From Rhodococcus sp. Leaf247 (GTDB taxonomy: Bacteria > Actinomycetota > Actinomycetes > Mycobacteriales > Mycobacteriaceae), in contig NZ_LMRP01000001.1 in assembly GCF_001426185.1 (NCBI RefSeq), forward strand, positions 124,483-188,482: a stretch of 64,000 bases of DNA. Direction: 5' to 3'. Shown piece by piece: positions 26,395-62,340 of the stretch (position 1 is the first letter of the stretch; every line of letters starts with the position of its first letter). The translations under genes were made by a program, and so were the position numbers. The notes under the pieces were generated by a model. That model made no database searches. It worked only from the letters and a program-made list of their open reading frames with translations, and was not told the origin of the DNA.

Positions 26395-27156
<762 letters not shown>

Positions 27157-27174: not shown

Positions 27175-27206
27175 GACGGCCCCGCACTCGCGAGTGCGGG
27201 GCCGTC
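27175..27206. terminator. hairpin terminator between TetR gene and DUF3107 gene
   Basis: A 32-base perfect palindrome (GACGGCCCCGCACTCG and its complement) with essentially no loop, lying between two converging genes. There is no T-run, so it probably acts on both transcripts as a GC-rich actinobacterial terminator. Confidence 0.75.
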
Positions 27207-38851: not shown

Positions 38852-38867
38852 CGGCGAGTGACCGAAC

Positions 38868-38908
38868 ACGACGAGGGCCGAATCGCAGTGCGATTCGGCC
38901 CTCGTCGT
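38868..38908. terminator. bidirectional hairpin terminator between bL37 and rshA
   Basis: Perfect 19-bp stem (38868-38886 and 38890-38908, GC-rich, containing GAGGGCCGAATCGC) with a 3-base loop AGT. It sits between converging genes, so it probably ends both. Confidence 0.8.
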
Positions 38909-38928
38909 GTCTGTGGTCGGACGGTGCG

Positions 38929-39887: not shown

Positions 39888-40268
39888 GCTGGCCCCTCTC
39901 GTGTCCCGTCCACGGACGGTGGCGACAGCGGCAGGTGAACCGTCGTCGGACGTCCACTTTACCGGTGGGATGATCACCACATTCGTCAGCACCGTCGAGT
40001 GACTCTCGACCCCCGGGCGCACGGGTGCAACGACGTTCACACGTCCTCCTCGCTCGACCGACGGCGTTCTCGTCCTGCCGTCCTCGTCTCCCCTGCAACC
40101 ACGGCCTGCTCCGTCCTGTTCCCGGCGCCGCGCCGTCCCCCTGCACTCCCCTCGCGCACTCCCCCCGCGAGTACGTCCAGAATGCTGTGGACACGCCGCG
40201 TGCGGACGACACTTCGGACGTACTCGCGGGGGATGGCCGGGCGGCAGGGCAGGAAAGGAATCGGCGAC
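39888..40268. other. 381-bp intergenic region between sigH and ybaK
   Basis: No supported gene; frames crossing it are extensions of sigH or ybaK. It must hold both divergent promoters, though no clear -35/-10 pair was seen. Its main feature is a perfect 17-bp inverted repeat (separate entry) close to ybaK. The stretch 40080-40160 is very C-rich. Confidence 0.6.
40162..40232. repeat. perfect 17-bp inverted repeat upstream of ybaK
   Basis: CCCCCGCGAGTACGTCC at 40162-40178 and its exact complement GGACGTACTCGCGGGGG at 40216-40232, separated by 37 bases that contain a smaller CACG/CGTG hairpin. It ends 36 bases before the ybaK start. No T-run follows. It may be a structured leader, an operator pair, or the remains of a small mobile element. 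Confidence 0.85.
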
Positions 40269-54707: not shown

Positions 54708-56483
54708 TCAGCCGGGCAGGACGGGCACCGACTTCGTCCCGGTCAGACCGGGAACCTCGCGCCAGTACCGATCGCTCGCGGGGTCGCTGTCGTCGATCTG
54801 GAACACCGCGCGGGAGTCGGCCACGAACGTGCTCGATGCCGACGCGTCGACCGCGACCACCGGTGCCGTGAGATTGCGGCTGGGGAGCCCGTCGAGGCGC
54901 GACCCGTCGACCGCGACCTGGACGATGGGGATGTCCGTCGCGGCGCGGGCCACCACGACGGTGTCACCGGTGCTCCAGTCGAGAGACAGTGCAGCACTGG
55001 CGAGTCCGCTGGCCACCGCCTCGGGTTCGCGCAGCGAGTAGCTGCCGTCCGCACGGCGGACGACCACCGCCACGTAGACCGCCCCGTCGACGATCATCGC
55101 GGCCCGGACACCGTCCCGCGAGAGTCGCAGCTCGGTGATCTGACCGCCGATCTCCGCGATCTCGGTGGAATCGACGTCCACCACCGACACCTGTCCCGTG
55201 GCCGGATCGCGTACCGCTCGCTTGACGACGGCTCCGTCCACGACCGCCCATACGGCGTCCTTGTCCGGACCCCAGGTGGGTCGCGTGATGGATCCGCCCT
55301 CGGCCACCGGGAACGCGTTTCCGCCGTAGGAGCCGATCAGCAGTGCATCGGGAGGTTGGGGAGCCGCGCGGCCCGTGTCGGATACCGCGGCGACCAGTGT
55401 CCCGTCGCTGGACAGAGCGATGGACCGCATGTTGTTGACGGTGCCGAAGTATCCGGGAACCGGTGTCACGCCGTCCGTTCCGATGCGGACCAGCCCCCCG
55501 TTGCGCAAGGCGTGCAGTCCCACGTCGGCTCCCGCCACCGCGAGCGGATCGAAGTCGGACACCTCCGCCGTGGTCCACCCGTCGGGGTAGGCGGGGTCGA
55601 GTGGCGCTCCGTCGACGAGAAGGACGTAGGGCCCGGACACTTCGGCTTCGGCGAGGGTCCAGATCATCTGTGCCGCCAGGAGTTCGCGGGTGGCGCGGTC
55701 CAGCGCACCTGCCCCGCGGAAGTCGATACGGACGCCGCCGAGGCCGATACCGACGGCACTGGTCCGGCCGTCGGCCTTGGTGATGGCGCCCGCAGTGGTG
55801 ACGCCGTTCAGCACGTTGCGCACGGCCGGTTCGAGCGAGAGTCGCGGTCCCGCCTGCAGCAGTGCGGTCAGAGTCTCCGTCATGCGGTCCTGCGTGGTGT
55901 TGACCCACCGCTGGTCCGGCACCAGCGACGTTCCCGTGGGATCGACGAAGTACAGGGACTTGCGCTGGTAGGAGTTGAGGAACTGGGTGCGGTCCATGAC
56001 CACGCCCGACGGCAGGTCGTCGATCCTCCACTCGCCGTCGACACGGGCCAGCGTCACCTGCGTCTCGAAGGATCCCTGTTCCGCGCGGTACTGACCGCCC
56101 TGATCCAGCTGACCCACCCGGTTGGCGCGGATCGTGTACTGGGCCGCGTCGCTCGACCGGGAATCCTCCAGCACGTCGACCTTGTCGACGACGATCGCGC
56201 TCGCACCGTCGTTCCACTCCGACGCAGCATCGGTGGTGAGGAACTGTCGCGCTCCTGCATGATCGTCCGCCGGATCGGTGCTGGCCTTGACGAAGTCCCG
56301 GACCAACAGATTGGGTTCGCGACCGGTCGCGGGAACCGGCAACTCGTCGGCGACGGGACCCCGTGCCACGGTGCCGATGGCCTGAGGCGCCGACGACGCC
56401 GGGAGCGAGGCGCAACCCGACACCAGGAGTGCCATCACGGCCGCCAGGACGAGGGCCGCGGCGGGTGCACGAGACGCCCTCAT
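54708..56483 (-). CDS. lpqB: lipoprotein LpqB, MtrB partner
   Basis: 591 residues. A signal peptide ends in lipobox LLVSGC (Cys24). The GerMN-type domain (about 195-320) is followed by a beta-propeller-like region ([28 protein letters not shown]). LpqB interacts with the extracellular part of MtrB. The start at 56483 overlaps the mtrB stop by 4 bases; the longer frame to 56660 lacks a signal peptide at its start. Confidence 0.94.
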
Positions 56484-58165
56484 GTCGTCCGCTCCCCGGC
56501 GGAGGCTCCCACGCCCGTGGGCCGCGCGGCGGGAATGGGCTGCCCCTGGGCGTAGCGCTTGGTCGTGGGTCGCAGCGGAAGTGGGCTGGACACCACCTTG
56601 CGTCCGCGGACCCGAGGAATGGTGAAGCGGAAGTACGCTCCTCGGCCGGGTTCTCCCCACGCTTCGAGCTTGCCGTCGTGCAATCGGGCGTCCTCGAGGC
56701 TGATCGCCAGTCCCAGGCCGGTGCCGCCGGACCGCCGCACGCGCGAGGGGTCGGACCGCCAGAAACGGTTGAAGACCAGCTTCTCCTCGCCCGGCCGTAA
56801 TCCGACGCCCTGGTCGCGGACGACGAACGCCACCGCGTCGTCGTCGGCCCGCAGCCGCAGTAGCACCGGCTTGCCCTCGCCGTGGTCCAGCGCGTTGGCC
56901 AGCAGGTTACGGAGGACGCGCTCGACGCGGCGTGGGTCGACCTCGGCCATGACGGCGGTGTCCGGCATGTCGATGATGACTTCCGTGCCGGTGTCCTTGG
57001 CCAGGTGGCGGACGGTCGACACCGCGGCACGCGCACACATGCGCACGTCCAACAGTTCCGACGCGAGTTCCGCGACGCCGGCGTCGTGACGGGAGATCTC
57101 GAGCAGGTCGTTGAGGAGCGTCTCGAATCGGTCGAGCTCGGCCACGAGGAGTTCGGACGACCGTTTGAGCAACGGGTCCAGACTCTCGCTCGCATCGTGG
57201 ATCAGCTCGGCCGCCATCCGGACCGTCGTCAACGGAGTGCGGAGTTCGTGCGAGACGTCGGAGGTGAACTGTCGCTGCAGGTTTCCGAACTCCTCGAGCT
57301 GCGTGATCTGTTTGGACAGGCTCTCGGCCATCTCGTTGAAGGACATGGCGAGGCGAGCGATGTCGTCCTCGCCGCGCACGGGCATCCGTTCCTTCAGCCG
57401 CCCGTCCGCGAACCGGACGGCGATGCGGGACGCCGATCTGATGGGCACCACCACCTGGCGTGCCACCAGCATCGAGATCGCGGCGAGCAACACCATCAAC
57501 GCGGCGCCGCCGAGCAGCAGTGTGCCGCGGACCAACGCGAGACTGCGGTCCTCGCCGGCGAGCGGGAACACCAGATACAGCTCCAGGGTGGACAGGTCCG
57601 ATGCGGTCGGGCTGCCCACGATCAGCGCGGGTCCGGAGTAGCCGTCCGGCTCGGACACCGTCGCGTACTGGTAGCTCACCTGCCCTGCCTGCACGAAGGA
57701 GCGCAGGGTCAGCGGGATCTGATCCGCGGGTCCGGTCGACGACTCCCCGCGGGCCCCGTCACCGGGCACGATCAGAACGGGATCGAACGTGCCGGCGGAA
57801 CTGCTGTCCGCGCCGCTCTCCGTGTCGCGGCTGGTCAGGCCGGATCGCGCCAGTTCGAGCCGGTTCGACAGCGACGTGGAGTCGTCACCCGCGAGCTGAC
57901 TCTCCACGGACCCACGCGCACGGTCGAGTTCCTTGGTGGCGGCTTCGATCTTGGTGTCCAGCAGTCGGTCGGTGATCTGACTCGTCAGGACGACACCGAG
58001 GACCGTGATGACGATCAGAGACAGCGTCAGCGTCGAGACGACGACGCGCAGCTGGAGCGAGCGACGCCATGCGTGCCCGGCAGCCGCCCACACGGACCGG
58101 GACCATCTCACCAGGGGCGAGAAGGTTCCGTTGATGCGGCGGCGGGAGCGAGAGGTGAAGATCAC
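56480..58165 (-). CDS. mtrB: MtrB, cell-envelope sensor histidine kinase
   Basis: 561 residues. Two membrane segments (about 41-62 and 212-235) enclose an extracellular sensor loop. Then HAMP, HisKA with [14 protein letters not shown] (phospho-His306), and HATPase with [27 protein letters not shown] and [13 protein letters not shown] start at 58165, 29 bases after mtrA. Works with MtrA to coordinate cell-wall hydrolysis, osmotic response and division. Confidence 0.96.
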
Positions 58166-58194
58166 CGACGCTCACGCCCCCGAACGTGCGGTGA

Positions 58195-58872
58195 TCACGG
58201 CGGGCCGGCCTTGTAGCCGACGCCGCGGACCGTCAGGACTACCTCGGGATTCTCGGGGTCGGTCTCCACCTTGGCGCGCAGGCGCTGGACGTGGACGTTG
58301 ACCAGCCGGGTATCGGCGGCATGGCGGTAACCCCACACCTGTTCGAGCAGCACCTCGCGGGTGAACACCTGACGGGGCTTGCGCGCGAGGGCGACCAGCA
58401 GGTCGAACTCGAGAGGGGTCAGCGAGATGAGGACACCGTCGCGCGTCACCTTGTGCGCCGGCACGTCGATCACGACGTCGCCGATCGACAGCAGCTCGGC
58501 CGGTTCTTCCTCGGTCCGTCGGAGCCGGGCTCGCACCCGTGCCACCAGCTCCTTCGGCTTGAAGGGCTTCATGATGTAGTCGTCCGCACCCGATTCGAGC
58601 CCGAGCACCACGTCGACCGTGTCGGTCTTCGCCGTCAGCATCACGATGGGAACGCCGGAGTCCGCGCGCAGAACCCGGCACACGTCGATGCCGTTCATGC
58701 CGGGAAGCATGAGGTCGAGCAGGACGAGATCGGGGCGGTTCTCGCGGACTGCGGCGAGTGCTTGCGTGCCGTCACCCACCACGAACGGCTCGAATCCCTC
58801 GCCCCGAAGGACGATGGTGAGCATCTCGGCCAGAGCCGTGTCGTCGTCGACAACCAGAATTCGTGGCTTCAT
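58195..58872 (-). CDS. mtrA: MtrA, OmpR-type response regulator
   Basis: 225 residues. The receiver domain with VVDDD (acid pocket) and phospho-Asp53 in LLDLMLPGMNG, Lys in PFKPKEL; the C-terminal winged helix with LTPLEFDLLVALARKPRQVFTREVLLEQVWGYRHAADTRLVNVHVQRLR. 5 bases after tmk and 29 bases before mtrB. Essential regulator in mycobacteria. Confidence 0.97.
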   Translation of the reverse strand: MKPRILVVDDDTALAEMLTIVLRGEGFEPFVVGDGTQALAAVRENRPDLVLLDLMLPGMNGIDVCRVLRADSGVPIVMLTAKTDTVDVVLGLESGADDYIMKPFKPKELVARVRARLRRTEEEPAELLSIGDVVIDVPAHKVTRDGVLISLTPLEFDLLVALARKPRQVFTREVLLEQVWGYRHAADTRLVNVHVQRLRAKVETDPENPEVVLTVRGVGYKAGPP

Positions 58873-58877
58873 GGCGA

Positions 58878-59561
58878 CTATCGTGACATCCCGTCGTACT
58901 CAGCAGTCTGATTGAGAAGGTCGGCGGCGAGTCTCGGGGTGTCGAGCGTGTCGCCGTCGGCCTGCGCGCCGTTCACGACGAACCACGGTGACACCCACGA
59001 CGCGGCCGCCAGTCCGGCGTACACGGCCGCGGTCCTCGACTGCAGACCGCTGTCGCGCTCGTACACGTCTCGCGCGCGGGACGGGTCCTGCTGCTCCCTC
59101 CCCTTCGCGCGTTCCTCCGCCACGTCGACAGGTACGTCGAGAAGTATCTGGGCGGTCGGCGTCGGCAGGAGTAACCGATCGAACTCCAGCGCCCGAACCC
59201 ATTCGACTATGTCGCCGTCGGCGTCCTGGTGCATACGAGCTGCCGAGTAGGCGGCGTTCGAGGCGACGTAGCGATCGAGCAGGACAACGTCGTGCCGGTG
59301 CAGCATCCGACGGAGGTCGGATGCTGCACCGGCACGGTCCAACGCGAAGAGGACAGCCATCGAGTTCACCCCGGCGGCGAGGTCACCGTGCTCGCCGGCC
59401 AGGGCTTCCGCAGCCAGATCGGCGTGAACGGACTCGCCGTACCGCGGGAACGCGACACGGACGGCGTCGACCCCGGCGGCCTCCCAGGTACGCGTCAGCG
59501 CCGACGACAGCGTGAATTTGCCTGCGCCGTCGACACCTTCGATCGCGATGAGTACACCCAT
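58878..59561 (-). CDS. tmk: dTMP kinase
   Basis: 227 residues. P-loop IEGVDGAGKFTL (about 7-18), FPRYG with the substrate-binding Arg, and LDRYVASNAAYSAAR. Phosphorylates dTMP in dTTP synthesis. The start at 59561 matches the family N-terminus; binding site weak. It lies upstream of mtrA in one transcript. Residues 76-91 are encoded by a perfect 21-bp inverted repeat (separate entry). Confidence 0.93.
   Translation of the reverse strand: MGVLIAIEGVDGAGKFTLSSALTRTWEAAGVDAVRVAFPRYGESVHADLAAEALAGEHGDLAAGVNSMAVLFALDRAGAASDLRRMLHRHDVVLLDRYVASNAAYSAARMHQDADGDIVEWVRALEFDRLLLPTPTAQILLDVPVDVAEERAKGREQQDPSRARDVYERDSGLQSRTAAVYAGLAAASWVSPWFVVNGAQADGDTLDTPRLAADLLNQTAEYDGMSR
59291..59336. repeat. perfect 21-bp inverted repeat inside tmk
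   Basis: Left arm 59291-59311, loop GGAG 59312-59315, right arm 59316-59336, an exact complement over all 21 bases (arm starts CGTGCCGGTGCAGC). It encodes the tmk stretch RAGAASDLRRMLHRH in the minus direction. In RNA it would form one of the most stable hairpins in the window. Confidence 0.95.
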
Positions 59562-59598
59562 CGACCCGGTTACCGCCTGTCCTGCTCGGTGAGACGAC

Positions 59599-61095
<1,497 letters not shown>

Positions 61096-61179
61096 TATGT
61101 AATGCCACTCCTGTCGGCTGGTGATCACCGTCCAGGCTATCGGCTCACCGTCCCCGGTGCGTGTGTCGGGGGTTGGCGA

Positions 61180-62340
61180 TCAGGCCGCGTCGGCCCTGGA
61201 GGGGACGGATGCCAGCAGTCTCTCCAGACCCGCTCGGTCGTGCGGACGGAGGTTCGCACGGGTGATGTCACCGTCGTAGTGCGCGAGGACGCGGGGATCC
61301 ATGACCCGCCGCCACAGCGGAGGCACCATCGCCAGCACGACCATCGTCGCGTAGCCGGCCGGGAGCTGAGGCGACTCGTCGAACGTCCGGAGCGTCTGGA
61401 AACGGCGTCCGGGATTGGCGTGATGGTCGCTGTGTCGTTGCAGGTGGTAGAGGAAGATGTTGGTGACGATACGGTCGCTGTTCCAGCTGTGCCGGGGAGC
61501 GCATCGCTCGTAGCGGCCACGTGCCGTCCGCTCCCGGAGCAGCCCGTAGTGCTCGACGTAGTTGACCGACTCGAGAGTCAGGATGCCGACGAGTCCCTGC
61601 AGCAGCAGGAACGGCACCACCGTCGGACCGAACACGGCGACCAGTGCGGCCACGAGGACGACCGACAGGGCCCAGGCGTTCAGGACGTTGTTGCGAATCG
61701 ACCACGCCCCGACGCCTTTGCGCGCGAGACGCGAGCGTTCGAGTTCCCAGGCGGACGTCACCGCACCGCTGATGCTGCGAGGGAAGAAGCGGTACAGCGA
61801 CTCGCCGAGGCGCGCGCTGGCCGGATCCTCCGGGGTGGCGACGCGGGCGTGATGGCCGCGGTTGTGCTCGACGTAGAAGTGTCCGTAGAAACTCTGAGCG
61901 AGCGCGATCTTGGCCAGGCGACGCTCCCCCGTCTCCACCCGATGCCCCAGTTCGTGGGCTGCGTTGATGCCGATGCCGGCCACCAGGCCGACGCTCACGG
62001 CGTACCCGATCTTGTCCAGAGCGGACAACGACCCGAAGGCGACGAGATAGCAGGCGACGACCAGCCCCGCGTACTGCACCGGGAGGAACATGAACGTGCA
62101 CCACCGGTAGAAACGGTCGCCCTGCATGTCGTGGACGTCCGCCTCCGGCGGGTTCGCACCGTCCTCACCACCGATGATGTCCATCACCGGGATGGCGACG
62201 AAGAACAGCATCGCCCCGCTCCACCAGAACGCGGAGATACCGGTATGCAGCACCAGTTGGGACGGAAGCAGTGCGGAAGCAGGGGCGAGCATTCCCAGTA
62301 GCCAGAGCAACTTCTTGGGATCGTGCCACCGCCGCGACAT
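61180..62340 (-). CDS. alkB: alkane 1-monooxygenase, AlkB type
   Basis: 386 residues with about 6 membrane segments. The eight-histidine di-iron motifs are intact: HELGHR, EHNRGHHA, LQRHSDHHANP, plus NYVEHYG. Start at 62340 with GAGGAG 7 bases upstream. It hydroxylates terminal carbons of medium-chain alkanes using rubredoxin, but neither rubA/rubB nor the TetR gene that follow alkB in M. tuberculosis is present: sahH lies only 84 bases downstream. No rubredoxin is fused either. The electron donor must be encoded elsewhere. Confidence 0.93.
   Translation of the reverse strand: MSRRWHDPKKLLWLLGMLAPASALLPSQLVLHTGISAFWWSGAMLFFVAIPVMDIIGGEDGANPPEADVHDMQGDRFYRWCTFMFLPVQYAGLVVACYLVAFGSLSALDKIGYAVSVGLVAGIGINAAHELGHRVETGERRLAKIALAQSFYGHFYVEHNRGHHARVATPEDPASARLGESLYRFFPRSISGAVTSAWELERSRLARKGVGAWSIRNNVLNAWALSVVLVAALVAVFGPTVVPFLLLQGLVGILTLESVNYVEHYGLLRERTARGRYERCAPRHSWNSDRIVTNIFLYHLQRHSDHHANPGRRFQTLRTFDESPQLPAGYATMVVLAMVPPLWRRVMDPRVLAHYDGDITRANLRPHDRAGLERLLASVPSRADAA

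What the first reader, a model, noticed from the sequence alone, without database searches (positions are those of the whole stretch)
59291..59336. Perfect 21-bp inverted repeat (4-base loop) within the coding sequence of tmk
Two 21-base arms match without error although they also encode protein. Such a length is very unlikely by chance and no mobile element is visible. It could be an mRNA hairpin controlling tmk-mtrA-mtrB expression, an internal attenuator, or the scar of template switching during replication.
Basis: seen in the sequence. Interest (0 to 1): 0.7.

Follow-up and report, generated by a model that had tools for sequence, protein, structure and literature searches.

The report
Hairpin mutation scar inside tmk
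A gene for making DNA building blocks carries a perfect 21-letter hairpin that five related species carry only imperfectly; it is most likely a copying-error scar rather than a gene switch.

Summary
Two perfect 21-bp arms (59291-59311, 59316-59336) with a 4-nt loop lie inside tmk (minus strand, 58878-59561), upstream of a response regulator, histidine kinase and LpqB-domain gene. Codon-level chance does not explain it: 60 protein- and codon-usage-preserving shuffles of 768 kb of this genome's predicted genes never exceeded 19 of 21 Watson-Crick pairs, and it is the longest in-gene perfect hairpin in the 864 kb sampled.

The hairpin belongs to one six-species Rhodococcoides clade. The five relatives have it imperfectly: G-U wobbles in the two nearest, mismatches in three. 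The other 31 same-genus genomes lack it. Within the clade no pair covaries. There is no T-run and no Rfam match above a curated threshold.

Best explanation: a quasi-palindrome whose 5' arm was made complementary to its 3' arm, probably by template switching (quasi-palindrome correction), a known mutation process. Another gene of this genome shows three adjacent substitutions that perfect a 15-bp palindrome. Two independent point mutations in tmk remain possible. A regulatory role is not excluded, because the stem resembles this genome's T-poor terminator-like hairpins, but nothing here favours it over descent.

The parts
59316..59336 (-). 5' arm on the coding strand (codes RAGAASD of tmk); the more variable arm, fully complementary to the 3' arm only in this genome among those compared
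59312..59315 (-). 4-nt loop (CTCC on the coding strand)
59291..59311 (-). 3' arm on the coding strand (within the codons for RRMLHRHD of tmk); identical in five of the six clade species, two differences in G034
58878..59561 (-). tmk, thymidylate kinase, 227 aa, with the hairpin at codons 76-91
   Evidence: Pfam PF02223
58195..58872 (-). response regulator gene (mtrA by gene order), 5 nt downstream of tmk
   Evidence: Pfam PF00072 and PF00486; the name mtrA rests on gene order and recall

Best explanation
It is a mutational scar. The six-species clade shares a quasi-palindrome in tmk. In the lineage of this genome the 5' arm became fully complementary to the 3' arm, most likely when a replicating DNA strand folded back (or crossed to the sister strand) and copied the other arm: template switching, also called quasi-palindrome correction. 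It persists because the changes cost the protein little and translating ribosomes can open the hairpin. Shown: the perfect palindrome, the imperfect forms in five relatives, and its absence from the other 31 same-genus genomes. Inferred: the copying mechanism, that both changes came in one event, the direction of change, and the lack of a function.
For: The five clade relatives carry the same hairpin with 3-6 non-Watson-Crick pairs of 21. Two bases occur only in this genome, A at two third positions of neighbouring Ala codons, and both complete pairs. At the locus, a third-position G shared by four relatives is A here at 26 of 470 sites (3 of 20 for GCG codons), so two independent hits are about 0.3-2%. 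In L131:7196-7225, inside another gene, three adjacent bases differ from those shared by G022, G036 and G014 and perfect a 15-bp palindrome, the pattern expected of template switching. Over 303 kb aligned with the sister G022, in-gene perfect hairpins with arms of 14 bp or more number 5 here and 0 there. Template switching is described as turning quasi-palindromes into palindromes in E. coli (PMC7202029, passages) and homogenising inverted repeats in yeast genes (PMC8604942, abstract and section 5).
Against: The two tmk changes are three bases apart, not adjacent, so independent point mutations cannot be excluded. Direction rests on comparing columns with outgroup species; an ancestor with the perfect form that decayed in the relatives costs about two more steps and GC pressure could favour it. 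Hairpins picked for being perfect here will look imperfect in relatives (ascertainment), which weakens the counts; one of the five lies in a doubtful 114-nt gene call (L167). Runs of three or more adjacent differences in inverted repeats with arms of 9 or more: 6 of 56 perfect here against 1 of 54 perfect in the sister (Fisher p 0.11) and 1 of 75 mirror-repeat controls pooled (p 0.04), only suggestive. All six species keep a very stable stem, which selection could also explain.
Confidence: 0.63

Rival explanations
1. Chance point mutations: an inherited quasi-palindrome reached perfection by two independent third-position changes to A, without template switching.
For: Site rate 26 of 470 (3 of 20 for GCG codons), so roughly 0.3-2% for this pair, and a genome holds several quasi-palindromes that could have done so: in the gene sample stems with 16 Watson-Crick pairs were as common as in the shuffles (24 against 27.1) and those with 17 about twice (8 against 4.1).
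Against: It also needs the other arm positions to stay paired; the synonymous null never reached 20 of 21; the adjacent triple change in L131 points to a correction process in this genome. It does not by itself explain how the quasi-palindrome of the clade arose.
Confidence: 0.2
2. A selected mRNA hairpin: an intragenic, T-poor terminator or attenuator that forms when ribosomes lag in tmk and lowers transcription into the downstream two-component genes.
For: In all six species the stem is far more stable than random synonymous codings of the same peptide (observed -35.7 to -46.9, null means -17.7 to -19.8 kcal/mol). Hairpins outside genes are themselves long, perfect and T-poor: 25 of 31 of 13 bp or more lie within 60 nt of a predicted stop, with 2-5 T in the next 8 nt; the tmk stem has 3. 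tmk and the response regulator gene are 5 nt apart.
Against: Among the six, 0 of 21 pairs changed on both sides and 9 of 126 cells are unpaired. Absent from the other 31 same-genus genomes. No terminator-like hit in 57800-60200. It lies in a translated frame.
Confidence: 0.12
3. A mobile or dispersed repeat, or a site for a DNA-binding protein used at several places.
For: Length and perfection alone.
Against: Neither arm occurs elsewhere in the genome with up to 3 mismatches; the arms encode tmk residues and relatives show no length change there.
Confidence: 0.02

Closest known systems
Quasi-palindrome correction by replication template switching, as studied in E. coli thyA and lacZ reporters (PMC7202029, passages)
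   Same: An imperfect inverted repeat in a bacterial gene becomes more perfect when one arm takes the complement of the other.
   Different: Inferred here from species comparison, not observed as a mutation; two non-adjacent changes in tmk.
Inverted-repeat arm homogenisation in Saccharomyces cerevisiae genes (PMC8604942, abstract and section 5)
   Same: Perfect inverted repeat in coding DNA, imperfect in relatives, changes on an arm.
   Different: Arms there were 7-16 bp and strains of one species were compared; here 21 bp and different species.
Coding palindromes of Nematomorpha mitochondria (PMC6649704, passages)
   Same: Perfect inverted repeats inside conserved coding regions; template switching suggested.
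   Different: Those are numerous and up to 142 bp per arm; here a 21-bp case in a bacterial chromosome.
T-poor terminator-like hairpins outside the genes of this genome
   Same: Stem length, perfection and lack of a T-run.
   Different: Most of those lie just after predicted stops; this one lies inside a reading frame, about 410 nt before the tmk stop.

Membership tests
Quasi-palindrome correction (template-switch) scar | Relatives hold an imperfect inverted repeat at the same place | tested here: met
   Five of five clade relatives
Quasi-palindrome correction (template-switch) scar | The new changes increase arm complementarity and lie on one arm | tested here: met
   Both bases found only in this genome are in the 5' arm and complete pairs; direction by outgroup comparison only
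Quasi-palindrome correction (template-switch) scar | The changes arose in a single event | tested here: inconclusive
   Two changes three bases apart in tmk; three adjacent changes at another gene, L131
Intrinsic terminator | GC-rich stem followed by a T-run | tested here: not met
   No terminator-like site in 57800-60200; 3 T in the 8 nt after the stem
Intrinsic terminator | Transcript 3' ends at the hairpin | not testable with these tools
   No RNA data were available
Conserved cis-regulatory RNA | Base pairs kept by compensatory change | tested here: not met
   0 of 21 pairs changed on both sides among the six sequences with the hairpin; six sequences is a small set
Conserved cis-regulatory RNA | Match to a described RNA family | tested here: not met
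   In 57800-61300 only two microRNA models, 27 and 20 bits against gathering scores of 95 and 100
Mobile or dispersed repeat | Further copies in the genome | tested here: not met
   The 21-nt arm with up to 3 mismatches occurs only as the two arms in G000

The most novel reading that the evidence does not exclude
A clade-specific, T-poor terminator hidden inside tmk and held open by translating ribosomes, so that expression of the downstream two-component system (mtrA-mtrB by gene order) falls whenever translation of tmk falters, with template switching renewing the stem's pairing in this lineage.
Probability: 0.08. Interest if true: 0.55.

Novelty: new member of a known kind. Interest (0 to 1): 0.27.

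Why it matters
It is a clear natural case, in an actinobacterial housekeeping gene, of a mutation process better known from E. coli and yeast work, and related species preserve intermediate forms of the same hairpin. If the hairpin proved to act in transcription, it would tie translation of tmk to the two-component system downstream.

Tried and rejected
Mobile element or dispersed repeat: rejected. The 687-bp tmk query found in this genome only itself and its own inverse (which scored 15 of 131 candidates), so the arm was then searched directly with up to 3 mismatches and found only twice, as the two arms. Known RNA family: two sub-threshold microRNA models only. Classical terminator: no hit. 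RNA-level selection by covariation: with G015 included the seven-sequence count looks favourable (3 pairs changed on both sides, 7 of 500 shuffles as high), but G015 does not form this hairpin, and among the six species that do there is no covariation. Papers holding all of mtrA, tmk, operon and promoter: 0.

Mishaps: alignment A1 mixed strands and was replaced by A2; a script failed on its search pattern and was rerun; a pattern found nothing in three loci and was replaced by tblastn. One search scanned 89 loci; six gave no motif hit (L022, L024, L036, L053, L087, L088). Of these the three same-genus ones were examined and lack the hairpin (46-nt folds -12.0, -22.8, -10.9); L053, L087 and L088, from other genera, were not examined further. 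G027 has a different, shorter stem within the same stretch (12 pairs, 1 mismatch); G027 and G013, outside the clade, also fold somewhat better than their synonymous nulls (1.0% and 2.4% of codings as stable).

Genes in the 864 kb sample come from a home-made codon scorer, not a published gene finder, so some 'in-gene' hairpins may be misplaced, for example L167:2171-2207 in a 114-nt gene call. The aligned blocks are those that blastn found among the stretches fetched, 303 kb, not a whole-genome comparison.

Full report
What is there. The window's minus strand carries an S-adenosylhomocysteine hydrolase gene (59599-61128), tmk (58878-59561), a response regulator (58195-58872), a histidine kinase (56480-58165) and an LpqB-domain gene (54708-56438), identified by Pfam; the names mtrA, mtrB and lpqB rest on these domains, gene order and recall. 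Inside tmk, arms 59291-59311 and 59316-59336 are perfectly complementary over 21 bp with a 4-nt loop. On the coding strand the 5' arm codes RAGAASD and the 3' arm lies in the codons for RRMLHRHD.

Is it chance? Sixty dinucleotide Markov copies of the window gave no perfect hairpin longer than 14 bp (loop up to 20); the window has one each of 22, 21 and 16. The 22- and 16-bp ones lie outside predicted genes, 19-20 nt from a predicted stop. In 864 kb of this genome (the window plus 40 stretches of contig C1; 89% in predicted genes) perfect hairpins of 13 bp or more with loops up to 12 number 6 inside genes (13, 14, 14, 15, 16 and 21 bp) and 31 outside. In 60 shuffles of synonymous codons within the sampled genes (768 kb), stems with 16, 17, 18 and 19 Watson-Crick pairs of 21 averaged 27.1, 4.1, 0.27 and 0.03, and none had 20 or 21. 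Observed were 24, 8, 1 and 0, and the tmk stem with 21. The tmk hairpin is far outside codon-usage chance, while shorter stems are at or a little above it.

Relatives. A tree from tmk and 1.5 kb on either side, without the palindrome columns, groups ((this genome,(G022,G036)),((G004,G014),G034)) and then G015, each with 100% bootstrap. Only these six of the 37 same-genus genomes have the hairpin: 28 of the other 31 were examined and the remaining three. The 3' arm is identical in five of the six; the 5' arm varies. As 46-nt RNA, G022 and G036 still pair fully through G-U wobbles (-42.1 and -40.3 kcal/mol, against -45.8 here); G004 and G014 have two unpaired positions (-34.6, -35.5); G034 is broken in the inner part (-35.8 by another pairing); G015 gives -18.6 and ten further genomes -8.1 to -19.1, with no such stem.

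Which way did it change? Against its nearest relatives G022 and G036 the 5' arm differs at three places. At two of them, third positions of neighbouring Ala codons, A occurs only in this genome: the five relatives have G at the first, and G, G, G, G and C at the second; G015 has G and T. At the third place G022 and G036 have T where this genome and the others have C, so that difference probably arose on their side. The simplest reading is that both A's are new here; both complete pairs. Across six genes of the locus (the rest of tmk included, palindrome excluded), a third-position G shared by four relatives is A here at 26 of 470 sites, and a GCG codon shared by four is GCA at 3 of 20, so two independent hits are about 0.3-2%, before allowing for the number of quasi-palindromes in a genome. 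Ancestral reconstruction was not available, so a perfect ancestor decaying in the relatives under GC pressure remains possible.

Is a correction process active? At L131:7196-7225, in the longest open frame there, this genome has a perfect 15-bp palindrome with no loop. Three adjacent bases differ from those shared by G022 (95% identical around it), G036 and G014; they complete the palindrome and change two residues. Of the other three relatives searched, G015 is too diverged to judge, G004 had no match and G034 only short matches elsewhere. Over 303 kb aligned with G022 (72 blocks, 84% identity), in-gene perfect hairpins with arms of 14 bp or more number 5 here and 0 in G022; with arms of 11 or more, 11 and 6 (mirror-repeat controls 2 and 3). 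Runs of three or more adjacent differences occur in 6 of 56 inverted repeats (arms 9 or more) perfect here and 1 of 54 perfect in G022 (Fisher p 0.11); mirror controls 1 of 30 and 0 of 45 (6 of 56 against 1 of 75, p 0.04). These counts point the same way but are small, not polarised, and carry an ascertainment bias.

Does it do something? For: all six species keep a stem much more stable than random synonymous codings of the same peptide (0 to 0.13% of 3000 codings as stable), and hairpins outside genes in this genome are themselves T-poor (25 of 31 within 60 nt of a predicted stop; 2-5 T in the next 8 nt), so lack of a T-run does not by itself exclude termination. Against: among the six there is no compensatory change and 9 of 126 cells are unpaired; the feature is confined to one clade; it lies in translated sequence; no described RNA family matches at its curated score. 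Descent from a shared quasi-palindrome, with conservation of the encoded residues, explains the retained stem without selection on RNA.

Known background. Template switching at quasi-palindromes yields more perfect palindromes in E. coli (PMC7202029: passages), homogenises inverted repeats in yeast genes (PMC8604942: abstract and section 5), is proposed for hairpins of RNA genes (PMC8794818: abstract and outline) and for coding palindromes in hairworm mitochondria (PMC6649704: passages). [quoted passage not shown] The tmk hairpin is best filed as a new example of this process; a regulatory role is unproven and could not be tested here.

Noticed in passing
L131:7196-7225: 15-bp perfect palindrome with no loop inside an open frame; three adjacent bases differ from G022, G036 and G014, perfect it and change two residues. 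The sharpest template-switch-like pattern seen.
   Followed up: partly
L168:133-178: In-gene hairpin near a predicted gene start (arms 15 bp in the strict scan); its three differences from G022 and G036 all favour pairing in this genome, by reading the alignment.
   Followed up: partly
window 38866-38910: 22-bp perfect hairpin, 1-nt loop, after a short ORF ending ...KGNKANHGKRPNA and 19 nt from a minus-strand gene end; no T-run, possibly a two-way terminator.
   Followed up: partly
window 27175-27206: 16-bp perfect palindrome with no loop, 19 nt after the stop of ORF 26437-27156.
   Followed up: partly
864 kb sample of G000: Perfect hairpins of 13 bp or more outside genes are T-poor: 25 of 31 lie within 60 nt of a predicted stop, with at most 5 T in the next 8 nt.
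   Followed up: partly
L131:7050-7400: This genome is 95% identical to G022 but 89% to G036 here, although G022 and G036 are nearly identical around tmk; possible recombination.
   Followed up: no
window 40162-40232: 35-nt inverted repeat, 77% complementary, 1 nt between the arms.
   Followed up: no
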